DNA of 64,000 nt from Halicephalobus mephisto (Eukaryota > Nematoda > Chromadorea > Rhabditida > Panagrolaimidae): assembly GCA_009193035.1 (NCBI GenBank), contig SWDT01000016.1, forward strand, positions 372,001-436,000, written 5' to 3'. The notes beneath the pieces are model-generated. The model had not been told where the DNA came from, made no database searches, and saw only the letters and a list, made by a program, of their open reading frames with translations. The position numbers were made by a program, and so were the translations under genes. Position 1 is the first letter of the stretch. Every line of letters begins with the position of its first letter. Positions 4,549 through 58,058 of this stretch are shown in pieces.

Positions 4549-6843
4549 ATGGCAAAAGAAGAGGCTTTGGATAAAAGTTCATCAAGGTAAACTAAATTTT
4601 ATATATGAATTTTAATTTTTTGTTTTAGTCCCGATCAATCAGACCAACCTGGCATCAGCGGACTGGATCCGGGCAAAAACAACAATAACTCGTCTGATGA
4701 CGTTAACAATGGCCTTCAGAAGTTGTCGTTGATGTCGAATGATTCCAGAAAATCGAATTGGATTGTGAGTTTCGTTTTGTTTACGTTGATGAGTTGTCAA
4801 TTGCGTGTTCCAGAATGTCCTTGGCGTCAGAAACAAACCTGATTTGCTTATTGATTGGGATCATTTGTACAATTTATCCGATCAATCCGAACTCAGGAAG
4901 CAATGCCAGAAGGTTATTGCGAAAGTTACCACTGCCACAGACGATCAAAAAACCCGAGTGTCTTTGCCAGACCTAGAAAGCATGATGACGCTTTGGTGCA
5001 AAAAGAGAAAAATCGACAAGGTTTCTAAGATTAGTTGGATGGATATCATGGTCGTCTTGATTCAGTTAGACTTTGACAACGCCACTTTGTTCAATATTTT
5101 CTTCGCAATCACAACAAAATACATTCCAAGGCAAGTTTCATATATGAATTTATTTTATTTTTTCGCTTTTACAGAGATGCCGCCGAAGGAGGCAAGACTT
5201 ATGACTTATTCCGATTATTGATGCAATACCACGATCCCGAAGTCTGTTCTCATCTTGATTCCCTTAAAATTTCTCCGTTTGCTTATTCGTCCTCTTGGTT
5301 CGACTCCTTACTTAGTCATGACATTGACAACCAGCTCTGTGCAATGCTATGGGATATTTACTTCGACAAAGTAAGTTCTTTAATGAAGAATTTAATAGCT
5401 TTTATCTTCAGGCCGATCCATTCCTAATTTTTTACATTTCTCTTGCAATGGTCCAAAGCGTTCGAGAACAGCTGTTGGAGATGAAGACAAAAGATGAAAT
5501 TATTTCTTTTCTGAAGCAAGTTCCGAAGAACATGGGCTCTGAAGACATTGTGGATTTGATCGATGTGTGTGCAGTTTCCATCAGTTTGACTCCAGTTTCA
5601 ATTCGAGAGGATTTTCACTGTATGCTTTTCGGAGCAAACATGGTCGAAGATTTTTACGAGCTTCCTCTCCACACTTTGCTTTGTATGCCGATTTCTGTCC
5701 AAGAACTTTACAAAAGAGTCATCGACGTTTCCGCAACAAATACCGTAAGTGAATTTACGACAATTGTTTGTCAATTTTGGAATTTTTAGATCCCTTATAA
5801 TTACTTTGTTGTGGATACCAGATCTTACAAGGACTTTGGAAACGGAAGCGTCTCAGGATCCTACAACCTTAGTGGAAGGTTACTAGTAGATGAACCAGAG
5901 AAATTCCAAAATGCGATGAATTCTCTGCTTCAGTTCCGTGAAGAGAATTGTCCAACAGATCATATTTGTTTCTTTGGATCAGGATTGGAAGAAGATGACT
6001 CTTACATGATGATGGTTATTTCTCGATTCTTACATAAGAATATCAGTCATATTTCCTATGTTGATGGTGGATACAAGGCTCTTCATCAAATGCTAAAAGA
6101 CACAAATAATCTTTCCAAATTGAGTAATCACTTTAGTGTTAATTCTTGTGTTCATTGTTCGACTGATTCTACCGCGAAAGAATCGTTTACTTGGTCTATA
6201 ATGGAAGGCATGAAGAGAAGACGACAAGAAATAGCAGAAGCAGCGAAAAATATTTCGGAATATCTTCCGAAACCAGATATTTTTTCAAGAGAACAACCTA
6301 CTCATGTTAAAAGCACAGAAAGACATCAAAAACGATATCGTAATGCTCAATCAGTATTTTCAATTGATGATTCAGATTCAGCTGATGATTTGACTGTATC
6401 ATTGGATTCTGCTTATGCTAATGAAAAATTGAAATGGGAGGATATTATTGGACAACCAGAAATTACCCATCATTTTGTTGGAAAAGAAGTTACTCCAGAA
6501 AAAATGTTATTGCCATGTTATATTGCCTTGAGTCGAACTCATATGCATATTTTTCATGATGTCCAAGATTCTGTGAGTTTTTTGATTTTAAAATTGTTTG
6601 AAGAAATAATTTTTTTAGAAGAATCATATTAGAACGTCTGCTCGCCATGCCCTTAGTTCTGTGATGCGTGTATCTAGCAAGAAGAATTACCCAGAATATT
6701 TGACTTTTCAATTTGGATATGAATTACCGACTGGAGAAGCTCATATCAATCGTATTCATAAGTTTATCATTTCGAAATCCGGGGAATTGGCAACAGCTGT
6801 AAAAAATAATATTTTTGCTTTGAAACCAAATTTGCTCGATTAG
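4549..6843 (+). CDS. TBC1D23 homologue (TBC domain plus rhodanese-like domain)
   Basis: Seven exons (4549-4586, 4629-4764, 4814-5130, 5175-5370, 5412-5744, 5790-6572, 6619-6843) give 675 residues, near the ~700 of human TBC1D23. A disordered Ser/Asn/Asp N-terminus is followed by a TBC-type helical domain (about 60-260; TKYIPR then RLLMQYHDPEVCS and KISPFAYSSSWF). A rhodanese-like domain follows (about 305-410; FVVDTRSYKDFGNG, ICFFGSGLEEDDSYMMM). The C-terminal domain (about 560-675) is PH-like. In the known family the TBC domain lacks GAP catalytic residues and the protein sits at the trans-Golgi, bridging golgin-captured endosomal vesicles to the WASH complex. Consistent with that, I see no YxQ glutamine finger. 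Intron 3 (5131-5174) has a GC donor. The ATG at 4549 was chosen because the upstream ATG at 4539 is out of frame. Confidence 0.9.
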
Positions 6844-8239
6844 TCTAGAGCTGGATTTTTAATTTTTGGGTCGCTAAATAATTGTAATCAGCTTATTTGG
6901 ATTATTTATTTTATTAATTAAATAATTAACCAAAGATGTTTAATGAGAAATTTTAGTCATGAAACTAAACAGAAATAAATATGTTTGTAGTTGTGTTAGG
7001 AACAGTGGAAGTTTACGGTAGAAAAAGTTGATTGTTTAGATGACGTCGGAAGGAGATAAAGTTCTCCAGGGTTACTACTGGATTGGTTATTTATTTACTT
7101 ATTGGGAATCTTGATCTGATTTCCTACGGTATATGTGTTGTGACTTTGGTCGGGTTATTTGTTTAAACTTCAAACTTGGGTAATTAAGCAATTTGTAAAA
7201 GACGATATTATATGAAATTAACGCTAAGAGAAAAGATAGTTCTTGTTTTTAAACAAGGAGAGAATGTTTTTGTTTGCTCGACACACTGGTTGCGGCCTGT
7301 TGATCGGGTATTTACCGTATTCTTTACAGTATGGATCTATGATGTTAAAGTTGTGGATCTTTAAAAACTTCTATTGAGTACTGATGATTTTTATCTAATT
7401 ACAATTTACTTTTGTAGTCGAATAACTTATAATTCTTTTGTTAGATGTAAATTTCACTGACAAAAGTGACTAGAACCCTATTTATAAATCGTTAACCAGA
7501 ATCTCAAATCGAAATTTGGATGTTCTTCAAAATTATTTTTTCGACATTTGTCTATATTTCCTAATAAATTTTATGAAATTGAAAATTTTCTATTTTTTCC
7601 GTTTTTTAAATTTCACCATCTCAAAATCAAATATTCCAATTAAGAAAACCTTATCCAGAATACAGTAATCTGAATCCAAAAGAACTCACGGATTGATTCC
7701 TTAGGGAAGTAACATTGTTACCGTACTTGGGGAATTTCCTACTTCAATCACTGAGTTACTGTAAAAATTAAAAAGATTTTTAAATTCGTAAACGTTAATT
7801 CTAACAATGATCGAATATCCTAATAAAAGTCCGGAATAATTTATTAGAAATCATTTTGAGATTTCCCGATTGAAAAAAATGTCTGAATTGATTTCAGAGC
7901 CTCTTTATCCCAATTTGAAGTCCTGTCAGACTCAAATAATTTGAAATTGGAATACTGTAGTTTCTGCTTTCATTAGTTCCACATCGATAAGCAATTAATA
8001 ACATAAATATTCAGATCTAGAAACTTTGCGCTAGTTCCACTTAGGACGGAAGGAACACTAAGCTCATGCTCCTACTCTTTCCCCACGATGTCTTGAACAA
8101 AAATATTCCTTTAGTTGTTTCTACTATTTCTAGAATTCACTGAACCTCAAGCAATGAGGGTTTCGATTATTATCTCTCATTATATGCTTTATTTCCCGTA
8201 TTCACCATTTTAGGATATTGGTTCGTCTACCCTGAGAAT
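6844..8239. other. Intergenic, 1.4 kb, no gene seen
   Basis: The interval between the TBC1D23 stop and the 3' flank of the NEK gene has no open frame of note, no tRNA-like fold and no obvious repeat. An AATAAAT-like polyadenylation signal for the TBC gene lies near 6974. The two genes converge here. Confidence 0.6.
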
Positions 8240-8333
8240 ACTTCAAGATGGGAGTGAAAAAGGCTAGATGTTTATAAAGATCTGGTTACTGTACATTTGA
8301 GCGGAAAATTAAAGTGAGTGTGGTTACAAAGGG

Positions 8334-9284
8334 TTAGATGTCGCACATGGAGCAGATTCTGGCGATGGCCATGAGGACGACGGGACTGGCCAGGATGTCC
8401 CTCGCCTTCGGTCTTCGTTCCGGGGTCACGGAAAGGCAGTCCAGCATTATCTGCAGCACAATTGGGTCGCTGCATCGTTTCGGCTTACTGTAGCTCGCCT
8501 TCAGGATGTTGTTTACTAAAGCAGCGTGGCATCCGCTGAAAGCTCTTTCAAGTTCGGTCAGTTCATAGAGAACACATCCCAGAGCCCAAATGTCTACTGT
8601 CTTATCGTAAGCTCGACCTGCAATTGTCGATTATTTCAAAAAACGGAAAAAACAAACCCATGTACATTTCCGGAGCTACGTAGTTACTCGTCCCGATGAA
8701 GGTCTTCGAAGGTCCATTGTCTTCCATCTCCTTGCTGATTCCAAAGTCAGCTACTTTCAAGATCTTCCTGGAGGCGTTCATAAGGATGTTATCTGGTTTC
8801 AAGTCACGGTGAATAATGTTGTTCCTATGCAGATACTCCAGAGCCATCGTTATCTAAACCATCTGCGGGTTAAAGCCCTCCAGAATCAGAATCTAACCTG
8901 TCCAAGGTAATCAGCAACTTCATCATCACTCAAGTAGGCACGAGGGATAGAAAGAGATCGTTGGTGTAAAAAGTCGGCGAGATTCCCTCCTTCCATATAC
9001 TGCATGACGATGTTCATGTTTCCTTCATGATCCACAAAGGTTTCAAAGAATCCGACGATAAAAGGATGTCGGAACCTCGAGAGAATCTTTATCTCCTCTG
9101 AATGAAAAGTGATATATGGGAACTGGATGCGAAACAAACCTTTTTGTTTTTCGGGGTCAGTGAGCGGAATCTTCTTGATAACCACCTTCGTCTGGAGAAC
9201 GTCATCAGTTCTTTCACAAAGATAACAGGATCCATGAGCTCCACGGCTGAGGAACTTGATTTCTCTGTAGTTTAATGGACCCAT
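8334..9284 (-). CDS. NEK-family (NIMA-related) serine/threonine kinase, catalytic domain only
   Basis: Four exons on the minus strand (9284-9140, 9097-8898, 8853-8658, 8617-8334) make a 274-residue protein that is almost wholly kinase domain. Visible elements are a glycine-rich loop (SRGAHGSCYLC), the ATP-binding Lys in VVIKKIP, catalytic IHRDLKPDN, DFG in VADFGISK, the GTSNYVAPEM activation segment and the NEK signature DIWALGCVLYELTELERAF. The sequence is closest to NEK8/NEK9-type catalytic domains, which in animals work at cilia and centrosomes, but the RCC1 repeats of those proteins are absent. The ATG follows a TTTTTCCAG 3' splice site by 9 bp, as in trans-spliced genes. It is divergent from tat-5, with 361 bp between start codons. 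Its last exon is duplicated at 2611-2886. Confidence 0.88.
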
Positions 9285-9645
9285 CGAGAATTTCTGGAAA
9301 AAGTAGAAAAAAACAAAAACGAAAAAAGAAAGATAACTTCGACTCGCTTTTTTACCAGTCAAAAGTCTACCTCTTGCCAATTAGACCATACTTTCTTTTT
9401 TTAAGGAAAATTAAGCGTAGCAAAAGGGAAATACTTTGTATTGGACCTATTTTCCTTTCCTTTCCCATTTTTCTCCCAAAGAACACTCCCGCCGCGAAAG
9501 TTGTCTTGCTTTGGCTCACTTCCAGCACGAGGAGCGTTACCTTTCTGTTTAAAGGAAAACCGCTGTTTCATCAAATATTTCATCACCTCTCGTCGTTGTT
9601 TGTTTCGACGGGAGTATGAAGTAGTGTTTCATTGATTGATTGTGT

Positions 9646-12600
9646 ATGCGTTTTAACCGAAAATCGTCACATCGACGATCTTTTGTAGTTAACGAAGAAA
9701 CGCCACTGATGGGCGACCGGACGAGTGTAATCGACGACGACGCTTATCTGATTCCGACTGCTTCGCCGCGATCTATTACATCTCTCAGCTCGACTTCGAG
9801 CTATTGTTCCAGCATGTTCAGGTGAGTAAATTCTTTTTTCGGAAAAAGACCGTTATTTCCCCCGATGACTCAATGTCGGAGAGGAGCGCGTTTTCAACAA
9901 AAGCACAACTATTCTTTCGACGTGTGATCGATCGAATCTGAAACTTTCGATTCTAATAGGATTAACTCTTGTAATACTGGTTCTATCATGAACAAGGTAT
10001 TTTGGAAGCCAGACGAAACTCCGGGCACCAGTAGTTATTCCGAAGTCGAATTTAGCGCTAATATGACCAGGTCTTCCAGAATTTATTATGTCAGCGGCGA
10101 AAAATTTTCATTAAAATTGTTAGTGATCAGTTATTTGTATACTCCGGAAATCTCGATATATGAAATTTACGCCGGGTTTTCAGGTGCTGCCGTAATTTCT
10201 TCCAGAAACGGCGACCGCTTTATTCGAGGACGATTCGGGTAGGTCATGGACCAATCTGTCACGGCGGTACCAGCTTTCCCCGGAATGCGGTTTGCAACCA
10301 GAAATACAACATTTTTACTTTTGTTCCGTTGGTCCTATTCCAACAATTTAAGTTCTTCCTGAACTTGTATTTCTTGTTGATGGCTTGTAGCCAGTTCATC
10401 CCGGCTATCCAGATCGGAGCTCCGATTACTTACTGGGGACCTTTGGTAGGACTCTGATCTAGTTTATGTTCCCAATCAGTTAATTTCCAGGGATTTGTTC
10501 TGACAATCACGCTGATTCGTGAAGCTTTGGATGACATTGTTAGATTCTGGCGAGATCGGGAAATGAATAGTGAAAAATACGAAAAACTCACTCGCAATGG
10601 CTTTGACGAGGTGGAAAGCGCGAACATCCAAGTTGGAGATCTGATTGTGATCCACAAGGACAAGAGGATACCAGCTGATGTCGTCTTACTGAGGACAACG
10701 GAGAAATCTGGAGCTTGTTTCATCAGAACGGATCAACTAGATGGTGAAACTGATTGGAAGTTGAGAATAGCTGTGCATTACACCCAGAATATGCACGAGG
10801 ACTTAGATATTCTGGATCTGAATTGTGAAGTCTACGCCGAGAAACCTCAAAAGGACATTCACGCCTTTGTTGGAACTTACAAGATCACTACGGATGACGG
10901 TGTTCATGACGGAAGTCTTTCTGTTGAAAATGTCCTCTGGGCCAACACTGTTCTTGCCAGCGGCACTGCGATTGGTCTTGTGGTCTACACTGGAAGAGAA
11001 ACGAGGTCTGTGATGAACACTACACTTCCTGAAAGCAAAGTCGGACTTCTGGATTTGGAAGTAAACAATTTGACCAAGATCCTTTTCATGTTCGTGGTTA
11101 TTCTCTCCTCGGTCATGGTCATTATGAAAGGGTTGGACACGAATTGGTACAGGTATCTGATGAGATTCGTCCTCTTGTTCTCCTACATCATCCCGATTTC
11201 CTTGAGAGTCAACTTGGATATGGCAAAATTGTTCTATTCTTATCAAATTGGCCGAGACAAGACGATTCCCGAGACTGTTGTGAGAAGTTCAACTATTCCA
11301 GAAGAACTTGGACGGATTTCTTTCTTATTGTCGGACAAGACAGGAACTTTGACAAGAAATGAAATGAGATTCAAGAAGGTGACCTTAGTTTTTATGCTTT
11401 TCATATAAAAATTGTTTCAGATTCATCTTGGTTCAGTTTCCTTTGGAGGAGATGCTTTTACAGATGTCGCGATGCACATTGAGTCTGCTTATTCTGGGAA
11501 ATTGGCCAAGCATTCTTTTTCTGTGAAACTCCAGACAGCAGTTGAAGCTATTGCTCTTTGTCATAATGTTACTCCCATTGAGGAAAATGGAACCGTTGCT
11601 TATCAAGCGGCCTCTCCAGATGAAATTGCTCTTGTTGAATGGACTGAACAGGTAGGAGTTCGTCTTGCATCCCGGGATTTGACCTCTATGGAACTTCAAC
11701 TCGCTAATGGAAACAGGAAACGCTTCCAAATTCTTTACCTTTTCCCATTCACTTCTGAGACAAAGAGAATGGGCATTATTGTCAAGGATGAAGCAACTGA
11801 TGAGGTTTGTCTCTTGATGAAAGGTGCGGACACTGTCATGGCTCCAATGGTTCAGTACAATGATTGGTTAGAAGAAGAGTGTTCTAATATGGCTAGAGAA
11901 GGACTGAGAACTCTTGTTGTTGCGAAGAAGGTTCTATCTCAAGAACAATTGGCCGATTTTGAAAAGCAATATCATGCAGCAAAAATGACGATCACTGGAA
12001 GAAATGAACATATGGCTGCTGTTTTGAGAAGATTGGAGACGGATCTTCAATTGCTCTGTCTTACTGGAGTAGAAGATAGACTTCAAGATCAGGTCACGAC
12101 TTCGCTGGAACTCTTGAGAAATGCTGGAATTAAGGTTTGGATGCTTACTGGAGATAAGCTGGAGACAGCTATTTGTATCGCGAAGTCTTCTGGGTTGTTT
12201 TCTAAAACTGATAATATCCATGTTTTTGGACAAGTTCAATCTCGAACGGAAGCTCATAATGAATTGAACCAACTGAGAAAGTAGGTCGTCTTTTTGGGAT
12301 TAAACTTACTGAATTTTTAGGAAATCTGATGTTGCACTTGTTATGACTGGCTCTGCTTTGAACGTTTGTCTCCAGTACTATGAAGCTGAAGTTGCTGAAC
12401 TCGTCTGTTCTTGCACTGCAGTTGTTTGTTGCCGTTGTTCTCCTGAGCAAAAAGCCCAAATTGTCAATCTACTGAAACGTTATAAGAAGCCAGCTCGCGT
12501 TGCTGCTGTTGGTGATGGAGGAAACGATGTTTCAATGATTCAAGCCGCTCATGCTGGTATTGGCATTGATGCTCATGAGGGAAAACAGGCTTCTCTGGCT

Positions 12601-13346
12601 GCAGATTTCTCAATCACTCAATTCCATCATATTTGCCGTCTGTTGCTTGTTCATGGACGATTCTGCTACAAACGGTCTTGTGCTCTTTCTCAGTTTGTTA
12701 TGCATCGAGGATTGATTATTTCTATTATGCAGGCGATTTTCTCGTGTGTCTTCTATTTTGCATCTGTCTCTCTTTATCAAGGAGTCCTGATGGTTGCTTA
12801 TTCTACTGCTTACACAATGCTCCCAGTCTTTTCATTAGTTGTGGATAGAGATGTGACTGCGGAGAATGCTCTAACTTACCCTGAATTATACAAAGAACTT
12901 GGGAAAGGCAGATCGCTTTCCTTGAAGACATTCTGCATTTGGGTTCTCGTTAGTATTTACCAAGGGTCTGTGATAATGTATGGTGCTTTGGTTGCTTTTG
13001 ACAACGATTTTATTCATGTCGTGTCGATTAGCTTTTCTGCTTTGATTGTAACAGAACTTATTATGGTTGCAATGACTGTTCATACATGGCATTGGGCAAT
13101 GCTGGTCGCGCAGGTAAGAATTTTGTTGTTTTCAGAGTTATTGAAATTGAATTTTAGGGTCTCTCGTTGGGTCTCTATGGTGCTTCTTTGTTGATATTAG
13201 ACAAGTTCTTTGATAGACAATTTGTGTTGTCTTGGACCTTTATCACGAAAACGACATTAATTACTATTATTTCTTGTTTGCCGTTGTATCTGTTCAAAGC
13301 CGCTCGCCGTCGATTCTCGCCACCTTCATATGCAAAAGTTAATTGA
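9646..13346 (+). CDS. tat-5: P4-ATPase phospholipid flippase, ATP9/TAT-5 class
   Basis: Predicted exons are 9646-9821, 9960-10070, 10184-10445, 10491-11378, 11421-12280, 12321-13113 and 13158-13346, giving 1092 residues; C. elegans TAT-5 is about that size. P4 hallmarks are the actuator motif in ATP9 form (DGETDWK, about residue 266), the phosphorylation site DKTGTLT (about 464), the hinge LTGDKLETA (about 722), [11 protein letters not shown] (about 829) and ten expected helices. [13 protein letters not shown] and [14 protein letters not shown] match ATP9A/B closely. TAT-5 is known to keep phosphatidylethanolamine in the inner leaflet and limit extracellular-vesicle budding, working with endosomal recycling. 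The N-terminus up to 10183 is the least certain part. Exon 2 (111 bp) is phase-symmetric and could be skipped in frame, and its donor (GTCTTC) is weak. The TTG at 9640 is not needed as a start. Confidence 0.92.
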
Positions 13347-21468: not shown

Positions 21469-21786
21469 TTTCGTCTTGAGAGCATCTGGCGGTCTCGGAA
21501 CGAAAAACGTTAATTTTACCAAATACAGTAATGCAATTGTCGGCATAGTGTCAGTTGAAAAGTTTTCTCAGTTAGTAAATATGAAAATAAAAAATTCTAT
21601 TCAATCTTCCAATCGGGACAAGTTTTGTCTTCCATACCTCGCGCCCATGTTGCCCGCAACGTGTGCGATGTTCCCGCGTCCAATTTGTTCACGAATTTCG
21701 TTGCCGACGTATCTCCTTTGTTTCTTCTTGTTGATATATGAATTTTATTATTTTCTCATTACATGGCATTTCAGAATCCTAGTGGG

Positions 21787-25004: not shown

Positions 25005-25045
25005 CGGGTTTATTCCTGGTTGTATGATTAACAAATTGGGTATCG

Positions 25046-29252: not shown

Positions 29253-29958
29253 TCAAGCACAATTGGAAGGGCGAAATATGAAACTGTTCCGTAATTCATG
29301 TAACCTTTTCCTCATGTCTAGTATTTGTTGTTCTTGTTTGCTGATATCTTCTGGTAGGATCTTGGTTATACCCTGAAAACCACCAACTAAAAACCTCCCA
29401 TATATCAAAGTGACTCACGACAACGAGAGGTTGTTCTGAATTGGCATTGTGACAAGGATTGTCGAATCCTCTTTTCGTTGAATTCGGTTGTGGCTGACCA
29501 ATCACACCATTTGTCGGGGGATTGGACTTGCAGAGGGCATTGGTCAAACTGAGAGCCGATCCTTCCGACTTGAGAACACTACAGTACGGAGAAACACTAT
29601 CGGGGAGATTCGTCCGTTGCGGCACATACTCATCATCCTTCTGGAGGTACTCCAAACTAACTTTGTCACATTTGTGAATAGGTGCCATTGCAACGATGCC
29701 CTCGAGGGATTTGGCCCAGAAAATCGGAAGCGGGGACTCAAGATCTTGAGGATATTTTTTCAATTTGTCGGACGGGGTGTCGGTCGTTTCCGGCCTCGTA
29801 CTGTGGACAAGAGTGATTGGCTGCTTGAATATAGTGGCGGTTTTCCTCCAGGGAGCAGTCAGAGGACCATCGAATCCATGCTTCACTGCGGCTTCTTTCC
29901 TATGTTTTGGACCTCGTTTGATCCCCGCATGACCTGCTTCTGACTTGATCCGTCCCAT
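29253..29958 (-). CDS. mbd-2: MBD2/3-type NuRD subunit lacking the methyl-CpG-binding domain
   Basis: Two exons on the minus strand (29958-29419, 29372-29253) give 219 residues. After a short basic N-terminus the sequence enters the MBD2/3 core directly: TAPWRKTATIFKQPIT, then DKLKKYPQDL and LPIFWAKSLEGI. It ends in a coiled coil (ITKILPEDISKQEQQILDMR), the segment that in MBD2 pairs with p66/GATAD2. The methyl-CpG-binding domain expected at the N-terminus is missing. This matches the known C. elegans MBD-2 situation and a genome with little or no CpG methylation. The start at 29958 was preferred over a longer in-frame read-through because an AAATAG 3' splice site lies 10 bp upstream. It is 255 bp downstream of ANP32 on the same strand. 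Confidence 0.88.
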
Positions 29959-30939: not shown

Positions 30940-32020
30940 AATTACTCCTGAAAGTTAAAATCCTATGACAAATGTGGAGAAAAACACGACAAATATAAAA
31001 TCTAGCTGAGTGTCAGCCTGGCACGGACCCAAGAACAAAGAATGGAAAAAGAGCGCGAGAAGCAAAGGCAAGTCAGCCGGACAGGACACACGCTGACCCG
31101 ACGGTGAACAGTTGCCTCCTCCTTTCAAGCGAGGAGCGAATATAGCAAAAATACAAGTCAACGCGCGAAAAATGCAATTGGCCTTGAATCAGCATCAGAA
31201 GGGTTAGTTAATCTCAACTACAAGTAAAAGACGGATTTACCCAAATTCCATATATGAGGAGAGAATAAACACGAGACCGAGTTCGTCGGGAACGACGAAA
31301 ACAAGCTTGGGAAAACAGGCAGACGTACAGAGGATGTGGATCTCTGTATAAGAATGAAGTCGGCATAAGATAGTTATGATGGCAGAAATGATTGAAAAGC
31401 AGACCTAGGGGGTCGAGCGCCGAAGGAGAGAAAGTTGAACCAAGACAAAACCGAAAGTTCCGAGAGTCGTCAAATGTCGAAAACTCGCGCGTCAAACTCT
31501 CGTTTCAAGACTCAATTTTAAACAAATTTGTTTTAAATAAAATTCCCATCGATTTAGTTTTACACGCCTTCCAACTAATCCTGTAGGCCATGAATAATCC
31601 TGGAAGTTATTCTTCACCTTCCTTATGATGATGTTCTTACTTTGTACCTGAAATATTTTAAAGCTGATGGTTTTTTATTAGGAAGTATTTAAATTAATTA
31701 TATTTATGTCCAAAAGTTACGCAATGATTTTTTACAAACAATCTATGATCGGCTACCCTTGACTATGACCGCAGTGGCAGAATGGACCATGCGCCACTCC
31801 GGCCGTTACGCCTCTCTTCCCTGTTCACGTGTATTTCCACTTTCTTTCTAGACAATGTATCCGTTTTTAATCTGATATATTTTCCCTTTTAAATGTTCTT
31901 TGGAACTGATTTAACCTTGTAGACTTCACATATTGTCCTTTTATATATGAATTCTACTCTGCGGTTAATCACATGATTACACGTGTTCGATGTAATTTTT
32001 GTTTTTCAGAAGAAGCAGAG
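30940..32020. other. Divergent intergenic region between ANP32 and clpX
   Basis: 1.1 kb with no gene. An E2F-like GCGCGAAA lies at 31163-31170 and CpG-rich steps follow near 31480. TTTATATATGAATTC near 31940 in the presumed clpX outron is one instance of the ATATATG motif described under findings. GTTTTTCAG ending at 32009 is the likely trans-splice site of clpX. Confidence 0.5.
31163..31170. promoter_or_regulatory. E2F-like site upstream of ANP32
   Basis: ACGCGCGAAAAAT at 31161-31173 contains GCGCGAAA, the core of the E2F/DP element, about 230 bp upstream of the ANP32 start on its strand. Assignment rests on motif match only. Confidence 0.35.
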
Positions 32021-37475: not shown

Positions 37476-39548
<2,073 letters not shown>

Positions 39549-41885: not shown

Positions 41886-43875
41886 ATGTCAGCGAACGCG
41901 GCATCCTCGCCGCCTCTTCCATTGTCAGTAGAAAAAGATCTTCAACAAGGTCAGCGTTTTGTTTGAATTTCATATAAAAATTAGTAAAATTTACAGCTGA
42001 CCTTCCTCGTGATGTACCGGAAAAATCTGTTACCTTTAACGAAGAAGTCAAGGAGAAACAAAAGCTGGGTCATCGGCGAATCGACCGACAAGGAGAAGTC
42101 AGCTACAAGAGAGTTCCTTCGAATGCCTTGATGGGTGCCATCCAGCTGGGGATCGCGAATTCCCTCGGATCCCTCGCGAACAGACCAAGAAGAGACATCT
42201 TGGTGCAAGATTTCGAGGTTATCGAGGAAGTAGCGTTTCCTTCAGTCGGATCTCAAACGACGCCATCCCACAAGTACGACGATTTCAAGTTCAAAACCTA
42301 CGCTCCAATTGCATTTCGATATTTTCGAGAACTGTTCAAGGTCGAAGCAGATGAATTCCTACGATCTCTATGTGCTAATTCACTGAAGGAATTGAGTAAC
42401 CCCGGAGCTTCCGGATCGATTTTCTATGTTTCGCAAGATGACAAATTCATAATCAAAACAGTCCAACACAAAGAAGCCGAATTTTTGCGCAAACTGCTGC
42501 CAGGATATTACTTAAATCTTCATCAGAATCCCAGAACGTTGTTGCCCAAGTTCTTTGGTTTGTTTTGCTATCAAGTAAGTTTTTTCATTTCAATGATTGA
42601 TATATGGAAGTCTTTTCAGGGTAGAGGAAAGAACATTCGACTTCTTGTGATGAACAATCTGCTTCCAAATTCGATTAAAATGCATGAGAAATTTGACCTC
42701 AAAGGTTCCACATACAAAAGATTCGCCTCCAAAGCTGAACGCGCCAAAAGCAACCCGACACTGAAGGATCTGGATTTCAATGAAGAATATACCAGTGGAA
42801 TTGTTCTAGATTCTTCTACTTACGACGTTATCATTGATATTATCCACAGAGATTGCATGGTAAGTGGGGTTTTGCAATTTTGTAGTATTTGCGTCAGTTT
42901 TGAAAGTGTAGCTTTTATTTAAAGGCTACTTCCCACCTTTTACGTCACAAGCGCGTAATTGTTTTTCAATTATAGGTTATGCAAAGCTTCAAGATTATGG
43001 ATTATAGTCTTCTTATGGGTGTGCACAATCTAGATATTGCTGAAGCTGAGAATCAAAGCGCCATTGAAGGAGATGAGATATCAATTGAAGGGAGTTCTGC
43101 AAACCCATCAATAGCGGCAACCGAGAGAGCAATAGCAAGGGCTGAAGCTTGGAAAAGTTATCAATTGGATTTTAACACAAGAGCTCCATATGAGTAAGTT
43201 GTTTTTTATCGATTTGAATTGGTTTTATGGTATTTTATTGCTTTAGAGAAGGAGGAGTGCCAGCGAAGAATTCCAAAGGAGAAAGACTACTATTGTTCCT
43301 CGGTATTATTGATATTCTGCAGAATTACAGACTTTTCAAAAAGCTTGAACATACTTGGAAAAGTGTATTGCACGATGGGGACTCAATTTCCGTACACAAT
43401 CCGGGCTTCTATTCTACTCGATTCCAGGATTATATTTCTGAAAAAGTATTTTGTAAGGGTTCTGCGGATTTGCTCCATAGTAAACAATCTCATAAGTTTA
43501 AATCTCTGGTTCATTCCTATATCGGTAAGTTTTTTAAATTACGATTCAGGGTGATTATTGCGGGATTTTAGCAATGAAACAAACACCAAATAGACAAACT
43601 AGTAGAACAAGGAGTCAGACAGAAAAAGATGACGATGGTAGAGACCAAGTTGATACTGGAATGACGAGTGGCCGAGCTGGTCCTATCAGAGTGTCTTATT
43701 ATAAAACTGATACTGAGTAAGTTGTTGAGAAAGTATTGATGGTAAATTTATTTTTAGGAAAAAGAAAAAAATTGAAAGATTATTTGCCTCAAAAGCTGAA
43801 CCAGAAGTCTTTGATGAACCAACTTCTAGTCGATCAGGAGTAGAAGTTTCTGAAGTAACGTTAACGTTGGAATGA
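41886..43875 (+). CDS. ppk-1: Type I phosphatidylinositol-4-phosphate 5-kinase
   Basis: Exons 41886-41949, 41997-42574, 42620-42859, 42976-43193, 43247-43524, 43572-43716 and 43758-43875 encode 546 residues. PIP5K hallmarks appear in order: [19 protein letters not shown]-like [33 protein letters not shown] with [14 protein letters not shown] (ATP-binding Lys), [20 protein letters not shown], the DLKGSTYKR substrate loop (about 238), MDYSLLMG and [11 protein letters not shown]. The sequence is type I rather than type II. A Ser/Thr-rich acidic tail ends the protein. The enzyme makes PI(4,5)P2 at the plasma membrane. Introns 1 and 2 carry CATATAAAA and GATATATGG motifs. GTAATTCTAG lies 12 bp before the ATG. 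Confidence 0.94.
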
Positions 43876-47563: not shown

Positions 47564-47769
47564 TCAGAATTAAAAACGAAATAAAAAATAAAAAGTCCCA
47601 TCTCTATGGATTCCCGTAGGCGCTTCCATGGATATTCTCGTTGCTTAGTGTAACTCAAACAATTCATTGACGTTAATCGTCAGAACAACATCAATTCAAA
47701 GAAGAAACCTAATCAGTCAAAAAACAACAACCCGTAATGGTAAACTCGATATTAGAGATCAATCAACGA

Positions 47770-50700: not shown

Positions 50701-52409
50701 TCCTTTAGCACCGGTGAAAAACGGTTGGATAGGAGCATACTCATGCTACAAAAAGCAACTCATAAAGATATAAATTGTCCCAACTTACATTTTGGAATCT
50801 CTTATTTTGACATTTGTCCTTCAAGACGCATCTCGATCCACATTCCATACGAAGATGAACATTGAGACAGTTGAACGAACAACCGTATCCATCTTTGTTC
50901 GGCTTGCAAGTGCACATGAGAACCATGGAATCTTTGACAGCCTGCATTGCACTCTTGTGAACGATGCATTCATCCACGATTTCAAACTTGGGCATTGGAG
51001 TTTTCGGGACATCAGGAACCTTAATCTTCGGTCGAACTTGTTGAGGAGGTGCTGGGGGTTCTTCTTTCTTACTTGATTTCTTCGCTGGAGGAGGACTGGG
51101 TTCATGTTTCGTCTTCTTTGCACTCGGAGGAGGATCTGGCGCTGGTCTCTTTTTCACTTTCTTCGATTGTTTCGTAGTCTGGTCCGACGCCGAACCTGTT
51201 GCTGGAGGATCTGGTTTGACACTCGGGGAACTGGGCACTAATTTTTTAGTTTGAGATCTCGTAATCGCCATGTCATCATCACAATACAAATCTTCCCAAT
51301 CAAACTCTTCCGTCCGATCTGAAGAAAACTATTAATAGGGATATATGCAAATTTCCAGGGAAGGAAGTTAATCCTGTTAATTCGTGCAAAGACCATGGTT
51401 TGCTTTAAGCAAGTGGAGGAAAACTAACCTTTTTCTTTTTCTTTATCATTATCCTTTTTCACGGTTGGTTCCTTCTTCCTCTCAGACTTTCGCTCATCGT
51501 AGGCTTGTATGTAATTAGTACTAAAAACGAATTATTTCCGAAAGTTCGGGAAACAATATACGAGTCAACTCACCACATGAGATCTTCGATTATGGGTTCC
51601 AGAATCTTGTGAATCCCGGTCTGAGTATCGTAGATAGCAATGCTGTTAGCCCCCCATACTTCCGAAGCCAACTTTCTCTCCGTCAAAATTGTAGTCCTTA
51701 TAGTTCTGCAGGCAGCTTCATAAGCAGCGATGGCTTTCTTGTAGTGTTCGAAAGCTTGGGGCACAACGTCCATGTTCCCGTCCATTATCTGCTCCACTAA
51801 ATCCATCATTTTGCCCGCATGCTTCTCCATAGTGTAGAGTTCAATCTTAGACTGCTTGTGCTTGACCTTGAAGTACTTTAATCTACCAAGGTATTTGGAA
51901 GAGAAAGTTTGTTTCATAACAGGATCTGTCGGTGGCTTCGGTTTCTTGAACACGGGTTTTTTCTTTGGTTCTGGTGGAGGAGGCTTCTGAATCTTTGGCT
52001 GAGTTGAAAGCCGGAAATCGACATCTGTAGAACTCGTGAATTTCGCAGTAGCGGACATGGCGGCTTTCCTGACGGGTGGGGCGAGGATGAAAGGATTGAA
52101 TTCCAAGGAATCCTCCATGCCTTCTGCTTGCGATTCCCTCTCCGGGGACAATCCCACTACGTCAATCTATGAATAATCCCAAAATCAATAAATTAAACAA
52201 GGCAAACAACCCACCTCTTCATTTGCCGTTTCTTCTGGATCGATGACAAAAACGATTTCGTTCATCTCCAAAGGACGAGGGGGTTCTTTCGAGTTCGGGG
52301 ATGTTTCTTTCTAAAAATTACCCTTGTCATTTAGTAAATAACCTAAACGAACATTTTCATTTCCTGGAGACTCTTCCATTTCTACATCGATAGAAATTGG
52401 TTCAGACAT
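47770..52409 (-). CDS. met-1: SETD2-type histone H3 lysine-36 methyltransferase
   Basis: Eight predicted minus-strand exons (52409-52353, 52310-52215, 52166-51574, 51520-51429, 51318-50789, 50745-49457, 49415-48002, 47955-47770) encode 1418 residues. An AWS zinc cluster (about 405-450; GCSFNCLNVHLRMECGSRC) precedes the SET domain (about 460-580; MEYVGEII, YMMGLRNGAVIDATTYGNYS, NHSCSPNAETQKW, FDYAFERFGKKAQ) and post-SET CYCGSEKCTG. A charged helical region follows, then a long RS/RD-rich stretch, a WW domain (about 1216-1250; WLIVPTDDGYCYYYN, TWDEPP) and a C-terminal SRI domain (about 1310-1400) that in SETD2 binds the phosphorylated Pol II tail. This order is diagnostic of SETD2/MET-1, which deposits H3K36me3 during transcription. 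The N-terminal exons before 51318 have only length and phase support. Confidence 0.92.
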
Positions 52410-52942
52410 TATTTACCAGCTCAAGAATCATCACAAACTCCAATCCCTGCAATGTTTTCAACGTTGAGGTGAAATCTAAATTTTTCCAACGTAACACAGG
52501 CCGTAAAATTCAGAATTGATATAAAATCTATTGCCAGAGCAAGGAAAGGGAAGGGGACTAAGCGGGAAGTCAATGCGGTGTGTTCCCTAGAAGCGGACGC
52601 ACAAAAGCATCAGGTCTGGCCAGAACTGCTGCTCTTTTGCGCGGGAAGAACGTTTCACTCGTCTTCTGTTCCGTGCCATGCTCGGCGGGTCCTTTTATCG
52701 CTAATAGACTTGGGGGTTAACGGACAATAATCTGTCAATACTGGTCACTTCCGCAGGGGACTTGCTGACTGGACTGATTTCGGAAGTCAGTTTCCCCAAC
52801 GCTTTCATATATCGACTTTCTTGCTCACATGTCCCGAAATATAGTAAATGAAAAGTAATTTTCTGGTAAATAGCCATTGCAACAACAGTTAGAAATCAGA
52901 TAATATTACAAGAGCTAGATGAAGGGTATTCATCCTTCGAAA
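52410..52942. promoter_or_regulatory. met-1 upstream region with an E2F-like site
   Basis: 533 bp between the met-1 start and the end of the V-ATPase G gene. TTTTGCGCGGGAA at 52635-52647 is close to the E2F/DP consensus TTTSSCGC. Further CG-rich steps surround it. The site lies about 230 bp upstream of the met-1 start codon. Confidence 0.45.
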
Positions 52943-53460
52943 TTAATGGTTATTTGAGGTTTTGTCGTTAGTGCGGTATTCGTCCAGGGGATGCAGTTTC
53001 GTGAAACTTCCTGAGGCAGCAATTTCCTTCTGAATCATGAAGTTGTGATGGATGACGGGCTGAATGTTGCAGACCTCCTCCAGGAGCTTCTCGACAACCG
53101 CATCACGGTGCTTTCTGACGGCTTCTTCGTACTGATTCAGAATCTCCTGGACGCTTTCTTCGTAGTCTTGGGCTTCTGACTGGACTTCCTCCTTTATCTG
53201 CTGGAGTTTCTCCTGGATATGAGCTTCCTTTTTCTGGAAAATATAAACATGTAAAAATAAAAGACCTTCATATATGAAAAACTTACATCTCGGATTTCCT
53301 GGATTTCAGCTTCAGCTTCGATTCTCGCTTGCTTGATCTTCGAGGTCCGAAAAGCCTGGGCTTTTTTGACTCTGGCTGCTCCTCGTTTCTCGGCATTGAT
53401 GAGTAGCCGGATGCAACGATCACCAGTAGGGGCATGGGTTCTCACTTGAGTTTTTATCAT
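52943..53460 (-). CDS. V-type H+-ATPase subunit G
   Basis: Two exons on the minus strand (53460-53287, 53233-52943) encode 154 residues, longer than the ~120-residue norm because of extra ends. The body is one charged helix: LLINAEKRGAARVKKAQAFR, KIKQARIEAEAEIQEI, and a C-terminal VVEKLLEEVCNIQPVIHHNF matching the conserved G-subunit end. The usual N-terminal Gln-Gln-Leu-Leu is replaced by RCIRLLINAEKR, and a ~25-residue tail (FTKLHPLDEYRTNDK) is added, so this may be a diverged paralogue rather than the main G subunit. Subunit G forms the peripheral stalk with subunit E. It is divergent from the trimethylguanosine synthase gene (473 bp between starts). Confidence 0.85.
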
Positions 53461-53933
53461 CTCTGTGTTCTTTCCTGAATCAGAATCGGTGCTTAAGAGA
53501 AGTCAGAAGTCCACGATTTGTGGGAATATTGAGTCGCACAGTTTGGCACGGAAATCACAGCGAGTAGACAGTGACTGCCACTCGCTCTCCACATGCAAGA
53601 GGAAAATCGGTTCTCAAAGTGGACTTTTAGGATTCCCACAGAATGTTTGCATTTTCCTCGTTTTTAGAAGCCATTGTTACACTTATTACTGTATCGACAA
53701 AGTGCCTAGACAGTAATCGATGAAATAAAAAGAGAATTAGTAGAGAAACTATAGTACAGAGAAGGAAATTAAGAGATTAGCCTAAATTCGTTCAAACACC
53801 GAACTCTGTTTCGCTTGGCGAAGTGCGTCAGATTGACAGCGAACTGAATGGTAATTGTGACTTACGAAATCATTGGGCTTGTTGCCGTGTCTTTCCTTTT
53901 CTGGATCTCTGGTTCTCAGGCTGTCATATTCAC
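53461..53933. promoter_or_regulatory. Divergent promoter region, V-ATPase G / TGS1
   Basis: 473 bp with no independent gene. TTCTCAG ending near 53919 is the likely trans-splice acceptor for TGS1. An in-frame ATG at 53823 upstream would be removed by that splice. Confidence 0.5.
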
Positions 53934-55831
53934 ATGACGGATTCAAATCCTCAAGAGCGAGAATACTTATTTAACTGGGACTTACTTCTAGAAGCTAAGC
54001 TAACACATTCAGAATCCGAATCTCCAGTTTTTGCTTTGTTTTCGAAAGTATACATTGAGTTTGTAGTTTGTGATAATCGTATATCAATAATCAATGTGTT
54101 TCAGTGACACGTCACTTTGGATATATCCGTACTTGAAGGAGTTATCAACGGAAATCTCAGACATGTCGATACAAGGGGAAGAGAAGAAACCGGTGTTAAA
54201 TTTCCGAAGATCTGCAAACTACCAACAGCTTCAGGAGAACTCCAGTAGCGATTCCGACGGTTAGTGATAGTTTTATCTTCTTCCGAACCTTTTTCATATA
54301 TGGATGTGATTTAGCTGATCAGGAGTCCACCGATCCGGATCTCCAGATGAAGTTGGCCATGGGTTTGCCTGTTTCTTTCGGAGCTCATCTACCCAATAAC
54401 CGGAAAAGAAAGAAAACATCTAAGCCAGTTGAGAAAGAGGCGTACTGGCAGAAGTTCCAAACGATGTTCGTTCGAGGAATTGAGGAACTTTCAACTTTGG
54501 GTGAAGATGGAAATCCAGAAACCACAACTTTCGCCAGTGCTTTGAAGGCTGCCAGTGGGTCCAAGTTGTTACCAGATCATTCTAAGCTTAATTATTTTAT
54601 TTCTCTACTGGAAACTCGGAAAACTGCCAGACTTGAAGAAAAAGAATTAAAAAATATTATTTTCCATGATGTAGCCAAATTCAACGGAATCCTTGCCAGA
54701 AATGAAGCAGAAAACTTTGTAAAAAAGGTGAGAAATTTACTTTTTTAAAATCAAAAAATAGTTTTAGCTTCAAAAATTGCACTATGTCCCTGGTTTTTCC
54801 ATAAGTAAAAACACCAACGGGAAATCCATCCGAATGGCGTCTTCGACCGATATTTTGAAATCTTTCGACAGTGTCAAATTCAAACAGCATCCTGCAGTTT
54901 ACGAAGACCACAAGAAAATCGATTACAAACTTGGACAGCAATTGGATTTGGATGCTCCAGAAGAAGACGAAATCGTCATCAAAAAGGACCCAAATGAGGA
55001 CAGTGATCCATTTAATTTCGATTTTTCTTTTGACCCTGTTAGAGATGCTCATCTAGTCGCCAAAGACGCGTTAAAGTACTTTGGGAAAAATTCTGTAAGT
55101 TGAAATTAATTTGCAATTGTGGATTTCACTTTCCAGAGTCTTAAAAAGTACTGGCACCAACGTGAACGTTTGTTTTCGAAACTTAACTATGGTATCCTCA
55201 TGGACGAGGAGAGCTGGTTCTCTGTGACTCCAGAACAAATCGCAAGACACTTGGCCGATCGTTTGGTCACGAAGAATTGCGTCATTCTCGATTGTTTCAC
55301 TGGCGCCGGAGGTAATGCCATTCAATTTGCTCTAAGAGGAGCTTTGGTCTACGCGATTGACCTTGATCCTGTCAAAATCCGAATAGCTCGTCAAAATGCC
55401 AAAGTTTACGGAGTTGAAGACAGAATTACCTTCTTCTGTGGCAATGCATTTCACATAATGGATTCTTTTATTAATTCAAGGAAGGACGATGCTTCCAAGC
55501 TGCCTTTCGATGTAGTGTTCTTAAGTCCTCCGTGGGGTGGCCCAGAATACTTGAATGCCAGTGAATTCACCCTCGACATGTGCACTCCTAATGGGTTTGA
55601 GATATTCCAACGAGTCTCCAAGATAACTGAGAACATAGTTTACTTTTTGCCGAGAAATACAAGAGTTTCAGATGTGAGGTTTTTGAGTTTTTAATGACTT
55701 TTTGATTGGAGTATGTTTAGCTTTTACTTCTTGCAAAAGAAACGAAATCTGGAAAAGTGGAAATCGAAAACGTCCAACTCAATGGGAAAATCAAGATGCT
55801 CAATGCTTATTACGGCGACCTCATCAATTAG
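53934..55831 (+). CDS. Trimethylguanosine synthase (TGS1)
   Basis: Exons 53934-54058, 54105-54259, 54315-54727, 54768-55094, 55137-55673 and 55721-55831 encode 555 residues. The N-terminal part aligns with animal TGS1 in pattern (FALFSKVYIED, then KLAMGLPVSFG). The C-terminal 180 residues are the methyltransferase: KKYWHQRERLFSKLNYGI, SVTPEQIA, motif I LDCFTGAGGNAIQFA (about 391), AIDLDPVKI and the catalytic motif LSPPWGGPEY (about 471) whose Trp stacks on m7G. The end LNAYYGDLIN matches the family. TGS1 converts m7G caps of snRNAs, and in nematodes SL RNAs, to m2,2,7G. That makes it relevant to trans-splicing seen at many genes here. The first junction (54058/54105) was chosen because only that phase avoids stops. 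Confidence 0.9.
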
Positions 55832-57109
55832 TCCTTCCAATTTACCACATTGTGCTTGAACTACGCGGTTCCTTGTTAGTACTTTAATTTTAGAATGTTT
55901 TCAGTGTTGATTTGCCTGCTTGCAATAATTGTCGATTAAGAATTACGGAATATAAATTTGTCTTAAAAATTGGATTATTTTATTTTTCTTTCCATATCTT
56001 GACAGATAGCTTTTTGAAATGATGGATATTGGTTGTGATTTTTGAGTATCTGGTCAGGAGGATGAGGTAGTAATTATTGTGTAGGTATGGTACGAAATGA
56101 AATTATTCGACCTAGAAGTTGGGACCTTCAGAAATTATTAATTTTCTGAAAATCAATTACATAACTTTTGGAAAACAGAAGTATAGTAATAATTTTTACT
56201 CGAACAATGAGACATACAATTTATGCACTTTTGACAAAAGACGACCGAGAGTCATTCGTGCTTTACAGTATTCCACGGTTCCTGAAATTCAGGATATCAC
56301 CTCTGGTCCTGTCTAGTCTGGTTTTCTATTCCAACAATAACTAAGTAGCTACGAAATGACGTCAACTGCCCTTCTGATCTTTAAAATTCTAACAATCTGC
56401 CATAGGTACTTGATTTTTACAGAAAATCAGCTATAATTATTTAGCTTTAAGAAGGTTTTTGAACCCAATGAAATTTCTGAAATCGTAGAAAATTCTTTAA
56501 GGAATTAGAGGATAACACAAAATCAACATCACTAAAACCGTTGAATTCGAACTAATTTTAGAATAATTCAAATCCAAAACTCGGAGAATCAAATTCAAAT
56601 TGCTCAATTCCAAAACCGACAGTTTTGTGGAAAACTAATAACATGTTTAATCTATCGCAAAGCCCACACCAAATTAGAACGCAAAAATAACAACTTTGGC
56701 GAGAAATCCTAAAACGATTGAATTTTGGAATTCAATGAAGAATCAGAATCCAACATTAATTTTCATCAAATCACTAAAGTGAAGTGGAGAAAATTTTCAA
56801 AAACCGCACCTTAAATAATTTTCCCAATCATAATTTTAAATTTCTGTTAGCAGGCCTAAAATCACCAACCGGTAAAAATCCGCTGTATGAATTATTCACT
56901 CTAATTTCCAGATAGAATCCCATCACTTTAAAAAACAAAAATAATCACAAAATCCGCAGAAAGACAATTTTTTTCAAAATCACTGCAATTCAAAAATATT
57001 TACAAAACGCAATTTAACCAAAGTTGACTCTCACAACGAAAGACTGCGTTGGTTGAAGACCTGCAACCTTTGAAAATCGCATTGTTCTCGGTGTTCCTCT
57101 TTATTTCTG
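55832..57109. other. Convergent intergenic region, 1.3 kb, no gene seen
   Basis: AT-rich sequence between TGS1 and the SLX1-like gene. A short open frame at 56119-56316 has no recognisable domain. I see no tRNA, no array and no convincing mobile-element end. Confidence 0.55.
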
Positions 57110-58058
57110 TTATTTCCCACTGTTTCCTAGTTTCCATTTTGGCACCAGATTCATTGCATTAGTTATCTTGTATTTTTCAACAGCCACTTGAGAAATCTGC
57201 AGCAAAGCCCTCTGATCTCTGATCAGGTCACCCCATCTCGAGGTCGTGAAACAACTCGTACATGATACTTCTACAGGCAGCAGAGCCGATTCTCCTTCAT
57301 CTGACTTATTTAAAGCTTCTTGTGCTAGGCACCGTGCGTGAAAATGAGATTCACAGTTTTTCATCGGACAGCGCACTAACTCAGTTACCTAAAATTTGAT
57401 TTACCTTTAATTTTCATATATGAAATCTTACTGTTGTTATCGATTTTCTACATATTTGACAAGACTTGATAGTTTCATAATCACTTAGTTCGTAAGATAC
57501 TGTTTCTGTTTCTTTTTCAACCTGTCCGTACTTCCTTTGAACGTGGTTCGGGGGAGCCAGGCCTTCTGGGAAAGGAATCTCGAATTGTGCGCTTAGCCAT
57601 CGGAAATACAGCGAGAAACGTTTCCAAGGATCTGAATTCAGCATATGGCACACAATCCTCAGTCTAAATTGAAAATGCGATTCTTTTCTGTCTTTCTTGA
57701 GATCCAAGTCCTTCAGTCTTCTCGACTTGGACGGATTTTGCCAAGCCCATTCGAAACGTAACGCTGTAATAGAGTTCGGAAATCCATGAACAATGCAAAC
57801 CATATCCCATGGCCCTCGACTGTCTGTTTTCTTGGCACCTCCGTGATCCTTGCCAGAATTGTGCTGTACTATCCTTCTGTTCGGGTTTACCGTGTATCCA
57901 ATGTAACATTTATTCTGCAATTGCGTAGTTACCTAGAGCTTCTAGTCGTTTCTTACCTTGTAATGCCTCAATTCACTTCTACTAATCAAGCAATATACTC
58001 CGTAAAACTCGCGTTCAACCGTTGTTGTCGTTTGTTTCTTCGGTGAAGTTCCAAAAAC
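57110..58058 (-). CDS. slx-1: SLX1-like structure-specific endonuclease (GIY-YIG plus RING-like zinc finger), 5' end uncertain
   Basis: Minus-strand exons 58058-57957, 57914-57432 and 57388-57110 form one open frame. The GIY-YIG domain begins FYGVYCL and continues after the first intron with NKCYIGYTVNPNRRIVQHN, GPWDMVCIVHGFP and RFEWAWQNPSKSRR, carrying the catalytic Arg and Glu of SLX1. The C-terminal zinc finger is CQICRKS, then after intron 2 CPMKNCESHFHARCL and CTSCF. SLX1 acts with an SLX4 scaffold to resolve Holliday junctions and flaps. No ATG occurs in frame before the GIY-YIG core: the first exon opens after a TTTTAG at 58059-58062 and reads about 16 residues without Met. The start is therefore missing, in a further upstream exon, or non-AUG. 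The divergent gene starts only 29 bp beyond. Confidence 0.85.

What the first reader, a model, noticed from the sequence alone, without database searches (positions are those of the whole stretch)
4601..57425. A palindromic TTTCATATATGAA-like motif recurs inside short introns and outrons of many unrelated genes
Seen directly in: TBC1D23 introns 1 (near 4601) and 3 (5137-5148); NEK intron 1 (9111); tat-5 intron 2 (10155); clpX intron 2 (32429); mans-1 intron 1 (37738); the MBD2/3 intron (29398-29407); ppk-1 intron 2 (42597); a met-1 intron (51338); V-ATPase G (53268); TGS1 intron 2 (54294); SLX1 intron 2 (57414). It also occurs in presumed outrons of GANP (21735) and clpX (31942). Weaker TTTCATATAAAAATT forms sit in tat-5 intron 4, ppk-1 intron 1, GANP intron 2 and npp-6 intron 1. 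Both orientations occur, always between donor and 3' splice site. A rough estimate from base composition gives about one such octamer per 15-30 kb, while about a dozen fall in only ~2-3 kb of short intron. Many other introns here lack it. It could be a splicing or branch-region element, a nucleosome or structure signal, or the footprint of tiny inserted sequences.
Basis: partly seen in the sequence, partly recalled or inferred. Interest (0 to 1): 0.8.

Follow-up and report, generated by a model that had tools for sequence, protein, structure and literature searches.

The report
Helix-phased palindrome in early introns
In this nematode a short mirror-symmetric DNA word occurs thousands of times, is concentrated in short introns near the starts of genes, and on average sits in step with runs of A or T that recur once per turn of the double helix, which points to a DNA-level chromatin or gene-boosting signal rather than a splicing signal.

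Summary
The motif is real and genome-wide: TTCATATATGAA occurs 2631 times in 59.9 Mb, the same letters read backwards 3 times. In loci picked blind (window plus ten, 164 kb) strict sites number 1.49/kb in short introns, 0.05/kb in long introns, 0.05/kb in intergenic DNA and 0 in exons. Genome-wide it follows donors (181 vs 24) and precedes acceptors (254 vs 77). It behaves as a DNA element: half-sites vary without base-pair covariation and the core does not decay like a footprint. In 14 of 18 arrays copies are spaced near multiples of 10.25 bp, against 39 of 130 motif-free tandem arrays. AAA/TTT tracts oscillate with a ~10-bp period about its dyad to about 60 bp; eight control words and random positions do not match this. 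Motif introns are early: 30 of 189 of rank 1-3, 1 of 78 later. Closest known: C. elegans periodic An/Tn clusters and the Arabidopsis intron-enhancement motif. Best reading: a palindrome-anchored, helically phased chromatin element in promoter-proximal introns. Host: a nematode near Halicephalobus. Function is inferred, not shown.

The parts
4598..4609 (+). TTTATATATGAA (C3T variant) in 42-nt intron 4587-4628, intron 1 of the same gene as 5137
54293..54304 (+). TTCATATATGGA in 55-nt intron 54260-54314, intron 2 of 5 of the TGS1 homologue
   Evidence: gene identity
42597..42608 (+).
21731..21742 (+).
31940..31951 (+).
11400..11411 (+). weak form (two mismatches) in 42-nt intron 11379-11420
37735..37746 (+). 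weak form (two mismatches) in 43-nt intron 37719-37761
41969..41980 (+). weak form (two mismatches) in 47-nt intron 41950-41996
10153..10164 (+). weak form (two mismatches), TCGATATATGAA, in predicted intron 9822-10183

Best explanation
The motif (consensus TTSATATATSAA, S = C or G, rigid 2-bp centre) is a double-stranded DNA element, most likely the site of a symmetric (dimeric) DNA-binding protein. It marks the dyad of a stretch of about 120 bp in which A/T tracts recur once per helical turn, at half-integer turns from the dyad. Such DNA is bent or rotationally positioned, as on a nucleosome. The element is concentrated in the first three introns of genes. There it probably keeps the start of the gene in an active chromatin state or raises transcription, as periodic An/Tn clusters do in the C. 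elegans germline and as the TTNGATYTG motif does in Arabidopsis introns. Shown here: abundance, intron placement, 5' bias in predicted genes, lack of half-site covariation, helical phasing. Inferred: the protein, the nucleosome, and the effect on expression.
For: Abundance and symmetry: 2631 vs 3 reversed control; TTCAT and ATGAA occur at spacing 2 in 26 places against 1.4 expected, at most 3 at any other spacing from 0 to 15. Constraint: position 3 takes C>G>T and position 2 takes T>C, other single changes are 0-1 locally; genome-wide C3G 3068, C3T 1708 (control 61), A6G 58. DNA-level: C/C 2631, mixed 3068, G/G 403, where independent halves predict 2843/2644/615: an excess of mixed forms, the opposite of compensation. 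Intronic: donor-to-motif 181 vs 24, motif-to-acceptor 254 vs 77 genome-wide; 1.49/kb in short introns vs 0.05/kb intergenic in blind loci. Early introns: 30/189 vs 1/78, Fisher P=2.4e-4; genes with 5 or more introns 9/57 vs 0/71, P=4.7e-4; blind loci alone 9/116 vs 0/60, P=0.029. Of 22 predicted motif genes in separately fetched pieces I sent 10 to Pfam; in 9 a domain runs across the splice joint, within the first 120 residues. Helix: 14/18 arrays vs 39/130 motif-free arrays near multiples of 10.25 bp, P=1.4e-4; AAA/TTT oscillation around 59 solo sites, amplitude 2.51 vs null 0.71, strongest at 10-10.25 bp; one site per flank cluster, 35 sites, 3.09 vs 0.85, and 29 short-intron sites 2.74 vs 0.63; control words and random positions do not match it.
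Against: No chromatin, expression or binding data exist here. The two hit sets fetched separately show the 5' bias in the right direction, but each alone is not significant (6/8 vs 62/123, P=0.28; 7/11 vs 53/134, P=0.20; combined one-sided P=0.02). By distance (1 kb cut) the bias in short introns is only P=0.053. Genes were called by a home-made self-trained predictor. Many copies lie in intergenic DNA (17 of 44 hits) and in local or dispersed repeats, where a gene-start role is less obvious. In 27 sites with no similar flank the phasing is clear near the motif (P=0.004) but not from 25 to 70 bp (P=0.07). No significant phasing was seen beyond 60 bp. Four of the 18 arrays, and a fifth array made of a T-variant with 22-24 bp units (L009, not among the 18), do not fit or fit poorly.
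Confidence: 0.5

Rival explanations
1. Intron-mediated-enhancement motif in the plant sense: a transcription-stimulating word that works only downstream of the start site and near it; the A/T phasing is a by-product.
For: Early-intron bias and no rise of density upstream of starts; early vs late intron k-mer difference exceeds permutations (k=5: 0.304 vs 0.256, P=0.007); multi-copy introns exist.
Against: The parts read of PMC6760150 and PMC12055998 do not describe plant IME words as palindromic or helix-phased; C. elegans shows no such k-mer difference (PMC12055998). The helical phasing is unexplained by this reading.
Confidence: 0.22
2. Ordinary transcription-factor sites, often in homotypic clusters, forming intronic enhancers of many genes.
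For: Palindrome whose halves vary without compensation, clusters with helical spacing.
Against: Enhancer sites should also be dense upstream of genes; no such rise was seen. Phased A/T tracts around solo sites, even across exons, are not expected of a plain factor site.
Confidence: 0.15
3. RNA-level splicing element (branch region or intronic enhancer).
For: 63 of the first 100 listed motif-to-TTTCAG rows (of 254) lie within 0-9 nt, against 25 of 77 in the reverse order; many copies abut donors. Donor scores of motif introns differ (5.79 vs 4.75, P=0.013).
Against: Motif introns have stronger, not weaker, donors; one-sided variants show no clear sense/antisense bias; palindrome and phasing are double-helix properties; hits also in intergenic DNA.
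Confidence: 0.07
4. Footprints or fragments of mobile or satellite repeats carrying the word.
For: Local tandem copies and a dispersed unit of about 130 bp in long introns of unrelated genes carry it; one dispersed family with GTAAGT before the motif recurs. 91 solo sites fall into 65 flank clusters, the largest of 13 and 8.
Against: Most short-intron copies share no flanks with others, motif introns are hardly longer, the variant spectrum is constrained, and phasing persists with one site per cluster.
Confidence: 0.06

Closest known systems
Periodic An/Tn clusters (PATCs) of Caenorhabditis elegans
   Same: A/T tracts with a ~10-bp period, in introns (here: around the motif; there: per PMC10990930 passages and PMC7725773 introduction)
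   Different: Here the phasing is tied to a 12-bp palindrome and was not found around other A/T words more than 150 bp from it; the passages seen describe no anchor word. Anti-silencing function untested here.
Arabidopsis intron-mediated-enhancement motif TTNGATYTG (PMC6760150, abstract and discussion read)
   [quoted passage not shown] can be multi-copy
   Different: Palindromic, different sequence, helix-phased, in an animal; no expression test
C. elegans intron effect on expression (PMC12055998, abstract and sections 3, 6, 9 read)
   Same: Nematode; introns near the 5' end matter most
   Different: There early and late introns have nearly equal k-mer content and all ten introns tested work alike; here early introns carry a specific word

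Membership tests
PATC | An/Tn clusters recurring with about 10-bp period | tested here: met
   (averaged over sites, around the motif, to about 60 bp)
PATC | period present as a pervasive feature of noncoding DNA (6-10% of the C. elegans genome) without a sequence anchor | tested here: inconclusive
   no coherent phasing around control A/T words away from the motif; the published PATC algorithm was not run
PATC | located in introns of germline-expressed genes | tested here: inconclusive
   intronic; germline expression not testable
PATC | protects against germline silencing | not testable with these tools
   needs transgenes
[quoted passage not shown]
   30/189 vs 1/78; within-gene permutation P=0.00025 (6 genes, 8 hits, looser word); same direction, each alone not significant
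Intron-mediated enhancement motif | acts only downstream of the start site | tested here: inconclusive
   location agrees (no rise upstream of predicted starts), activity not testable
Intron-mediated enhancement motif | raises mRNA level in a dose-dependent way | not testable with these tools
   needs reporter genes
Splicing or branch-site element | strand-specific, fixed distance to a splice site | tested here: not met
Insertion footprint | added length and unconstrained decay of copies | tested here: not met

The most novel reading that the evidence does not exclude
A sequence-anchored version of the PATC system: a dimeric protein binds the palindrome at what becomes a nucleosome dyad, A/T tracts at half-integer helical turns fix the wrap, and this mark in the first introns tells the worm that a gene is self and should be expressed. 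It would be the missing sequence-specific handle on both PATC licensing and animal intron-mediated enhancement.
Probability: 0.25. Interest if true: 0.9.

Novelty: new variant of a known kind. Interest (0 to 1): 0.76.

Why it matters
How introns near gene starts raise expression, and how phased A/T DNA protects genes from silencing, are both open. C. elegans gave no sequence handle: its early and late introns are nearly alike in k-mers (PMC12055998). Here is a nematode in which the signal appears as one discrete, countable, mutable 12-bp word, found in introns of only about 45 nt and in arrays. The binding protein could be sought with a single probe, and the word can be deleted from a natural intron or added to a reporter.

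Tried and rejected
Hairpin or RNA duplex: the excess of mixed half-site forms is the opposite of compensation. Fixed branch-site role: the motif abuts both ends. Insertion footprint: length and variant spectrum argue against it. General promoter or outron element: no rise upstream of predicted starts. Transposon family as the whole cause: some long-intron copies share a ~130-bp unit across unrelated genes, but most short-intron copies share no flanks. CArG box (SRF-type site) was considered from memory: TCCATATATGGA fits it, but the ATATAT core looks far too rigid; no call tests this.

Literature: the searches list no title or abstract reporting this word or a promoter-proximal intron motif in a nematode; most listed papers were seen only as listings (PMC9071541 and PMC551538, which hold 'palindromic motif', were not read). 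In one search none of the 30 papers listed (of 36) held the 12-mer or 14-mer. Papers: PMC12055998 (abstract, sections 3, 6, 9), PMC6760150 (abstract, discussion), PMC7725773 (introduction, passages), PMC2518113 and PMC10990930 (passages).

Weak points: L010 was picked from a contig stretch with listed hits, and I wrongly counted it as blind; one search corrects this. Nine further loci were also picked on stretches with listed hits. L001-L004 were left out of the statistics except (they also appear); L002 covers the same site as one in L007. The 44 hits were solitary ones taken from the first listed rows. Array spacings use only the first listed rows, so beyond contig 7 some neighbours are missing from the lists and a 'spacing' may skip a copy. 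Of three motif arrays that the tandem-repeat finder saw locally, units were 62, 24 and 20 bp, i.e. two of three fit. In one search, 11 of the 100 donor rows were dropped (one array, one dispersed family), and only the first 100 of 254 and of 181 rows were available. Nine of the 24 motif-to-GTAAGT places come from two arrays, and six of the 181 in the other order come from one of them. Of 20 frames fetched, 8 gave a recovered intron; of 13 frames. The opposite half-site order ATGAA-N10-TTCAT has 6 against 1.6 expected; not followed up.
Full report
What was checked. The window count of CATATATG is 5 against 0.64 expected. Across the genome of 59.9 Mb in 331 contigs, TTTCATATATGAAA occurs 831 times (0 for the same word read backwards) and TTCATATATGAA 2631 times (3 for the control). 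The tool warns that its counts can be lower bounds.

Host. One predicted protein of the window (trimethylguanosine synthase homologue) is 76% identical over its length to a protein of Halicephalobus sp. NKZ332, 77% to an unnamed metagenome protein, 45% to Panagrellus redivivus and 35% to Caenorhabditis auriculariae. The genome is therefore that of a nematode near Halicephalobus; the species was not determined.

Gene models. I wrote a self-trained gene predictor whose splice models cover only 9 donor and 8 acceptor positions and whose intron model is of low order, so that the motif should give little help in calling introns. On the 264 kb held it called 276 introns, 162 of them of 70 nt or less. 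Of 22 motif genes predicted in separately fetched pieces (14, 8) I sent ten products to Pfam: nine gave a domain that continues across the motif intron and one gave none.

Where it lies. In short introns, 14 of 162 carry a site with at most one mismatch against 0.10 in shuffled introns; none of 388 exons does. In the loci picked without regard to hits (window plus ten, 164 kb), strict sites fall 8 in 5378 bp of short intron, 1 in 18872 bp of long intron, 4 in 72789 bp of intergenic DNA and 0 in 66961 bp of exon. Of 44 solitary hits taken from the listings, 14 lie in short introns, 12 in long ones, 17 in intergenic DNA and 1 in a predicted exon, where short introns make up 1591 of 52056 bases. 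Genome-wide without any gene model: GTAAGT within 30 nt before the motif 181, after it 24; TTTCAG within 30 nt after the motif 254, before it 77. Taken as independent the asymmetries have P below 1e-22, but some places come from arrays (nine of the 24, six of the 181).

Early introns. Strict sites are in 30 of 189 introns of rank 1-3 and 1 of 78 of rank 4 or more (P=2.4e-4); in short introns 16 of 110 against 0 of 49 (P=0.003); in genes with at least five introns 9 of 57 against 0 of 71 (P=4.7e-4). Within genes, permutation gives P=0.00025 with a slightly looser word (6 genes, 8 hits). In blind loci only: 9 of 116 against 0 of 60 (P=0.029), short introns 8 of 75 against 0 of 42 (P=0.049). A cut at 1 kb from the start codon gives 27 of 172 against 4 of 95 (P=0.005), and in short introns 14 of 102 against 2 of 57 (P=0.053). 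The 7-mer that best marks early against late short introns, found without using the motif, is TATATGA (20 of 110 against 0 of 49); one A-rich word, AAAACAA, separates the other way with similar strength (2 against 9). Two sets of hits fetched later agree in direction but are not significant alone (combined one-sided P=0.02). Upstream of predicted starts and downstream of stops the density shows no peak.

What it is made of. The two halves TTCAT and ATGAA occur at a spacing of two bases 26 times against 1.4 expected, and at most 3 times at any other spacing from 0 to 15; the two bases are always AT. Variants sit at position 3 (C to G 3068, C to T 1708 genome-wide) and position 2; the one core transition counted has 58. 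C/C, mixed and G/G forms number 2631, 3068 and 403, where independent halves predict 2843, 2644 and 615: there is an excess of mixed forms, the opposite of what base pairing would give. One-sided variants are about equally common in both orientations in introns (6 and 8 in short, 12 and 15 in long). This fits double-stranded DNA read by a symmetric protein better than RNA.

Helical phasing of arrays. Listed copies in arrays are often spaced 20-21, 30-31, 41-42, 50-52, 61-62, 80-82 and 92-93 bp. Taking one spacing per array, 14 of 18 arrays lie within 1.5 bp of a multiple of 10.25, where 0.29 is expected. Of 130 tandem arrays without the motif in the DNA held, 39 do, the chance level; the difference has P=1.4e-4. 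The four exceptions are arrays at 26, 46, 64 and 110 bp. A further array, of the T-variant in L009 with units of 22-24 bp, was not among the 18 and fits poorly. The spacings come from capped listings, so unlisted copies can lie between. Seven of the eleven arrays fetched for this purpose lie in predicted introns.

Phased A/T tracts. Around 59 solo sites outside short introns, AAA and TTT rise and fall with a period of 10-10.25 bp, about symmetrically around the motif centre (amplitude at 10.25 bp 2.51 against a jitter null of 0.71 at 13-60 bp; 1.78 against 0.69 at 30-90 bp). The folded profile peaks at about 6, 15.5, 26, 34.5, 45 and 54 bp from the dyad, i.e. near half-integer turns that include the motif's own TTT and AAA; by distance windows it is significant to 60 bp and not beyond. 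A side peak at period 9 is present and is probably a fringe from the excluded centre. With one site per flank cluster the signal stays: 35 sites 3.09 against 0.85. In 27 sites with no similar flank it is 2.80 against 1.02 (P=0.004) at 13-60 bp, but not significant from 25 to 70 bp (P=0.07). In 29 short-intron sites with exon bases kept it is 2.74 against 0.63, where motif-free short introns taken by their centres give 0.96 with a 97.5% limit of 1.71. Six larger control sets (five kinds of A/T word and random positions, 69 to 2432 places) stay below the motif's value; three small control sets (16-36 places) scatter up to 1.54 at 13-60 bp and up to 1.96 at 25-90 bp at single periods. Half-integer turns are where A/T-rich minor grooves face the histones on a nucleosome centred on the dyad (general knowledge, not a call).

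Reading. The pieces fit a DNA element that fixes the rotational setting of about 120 bp, is read as a palindrome, and is kept in the first introns of genes. PATCs of C. elegans share the 10-bp A/T rhythm and the intron location and protect germline expression (PMC7725773 introduction; PMC10990930 passages). The Arabidopsis TTNGATYTG motif shares the early-intron location and raises mRNA in a dose-dependent way without need of splicing (PMC6760150 abstract and discussion). In C. elegans early and late introns hardly differ in k-mers and all ten introns tested boost expression alike (PMC12055998, sections 3, 6, 9). So the present element would be a motif-anchored relative of the first and a positional analogue of the second, in a nematode lineage for which the searches named in Tried and rejected listed no report. 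What it does to expression, and which protein reads it, is inference.

Unexplained. Between GTAAGT and the motif, distances 0-6 nt (32) and 10-20 nt (44) are common but 7-9 nt has none of 89 rows. The word is also part of a dispersed unit of about 130 bp in long introns of unrelated genes and of at least one dispersed family for which no gene was recovered; whether these spread the word or exploit it is open.

Noticed in passing
264 kb of this genome (window and L005-L024): Other words are strongly over-represented in two-strand counts against an order-2 model: TACTGTAG/CTACAGTA (71 vs 4.0), GGATAGTGACTA (20 vs 0.01), TGACGTCA (32 vs 4.5), AGATTCTAGAAA (14 vs 0.15).
   Followed up: no
   Followed up: partly
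G000 C57, C60, C79, C120, C183 (L079, L080, L087): A dispersed repeat family carries GTAAGT, then the palindrome; no gene was recovered around the three copies fetched.
   Followed up: partly
L009, L010, L018, L020, L021, L025, L057: A unit of about 130 bp with the palindrome lies in long introns of unrelated genes, often 75-112 nt from the donor.
   Followed up: partly
genome-wide, GTAAGT-motif pairs: The motif avoids positions 7-9 nt after GTAAGT (0 of the 89 rows kept).
   Followed up: partly
window 3727-3945: Short predicted coding piece that looks like the tail of a non-LTR reverse transcriptase (recalled resemblance, not searched).
   Followed up: no
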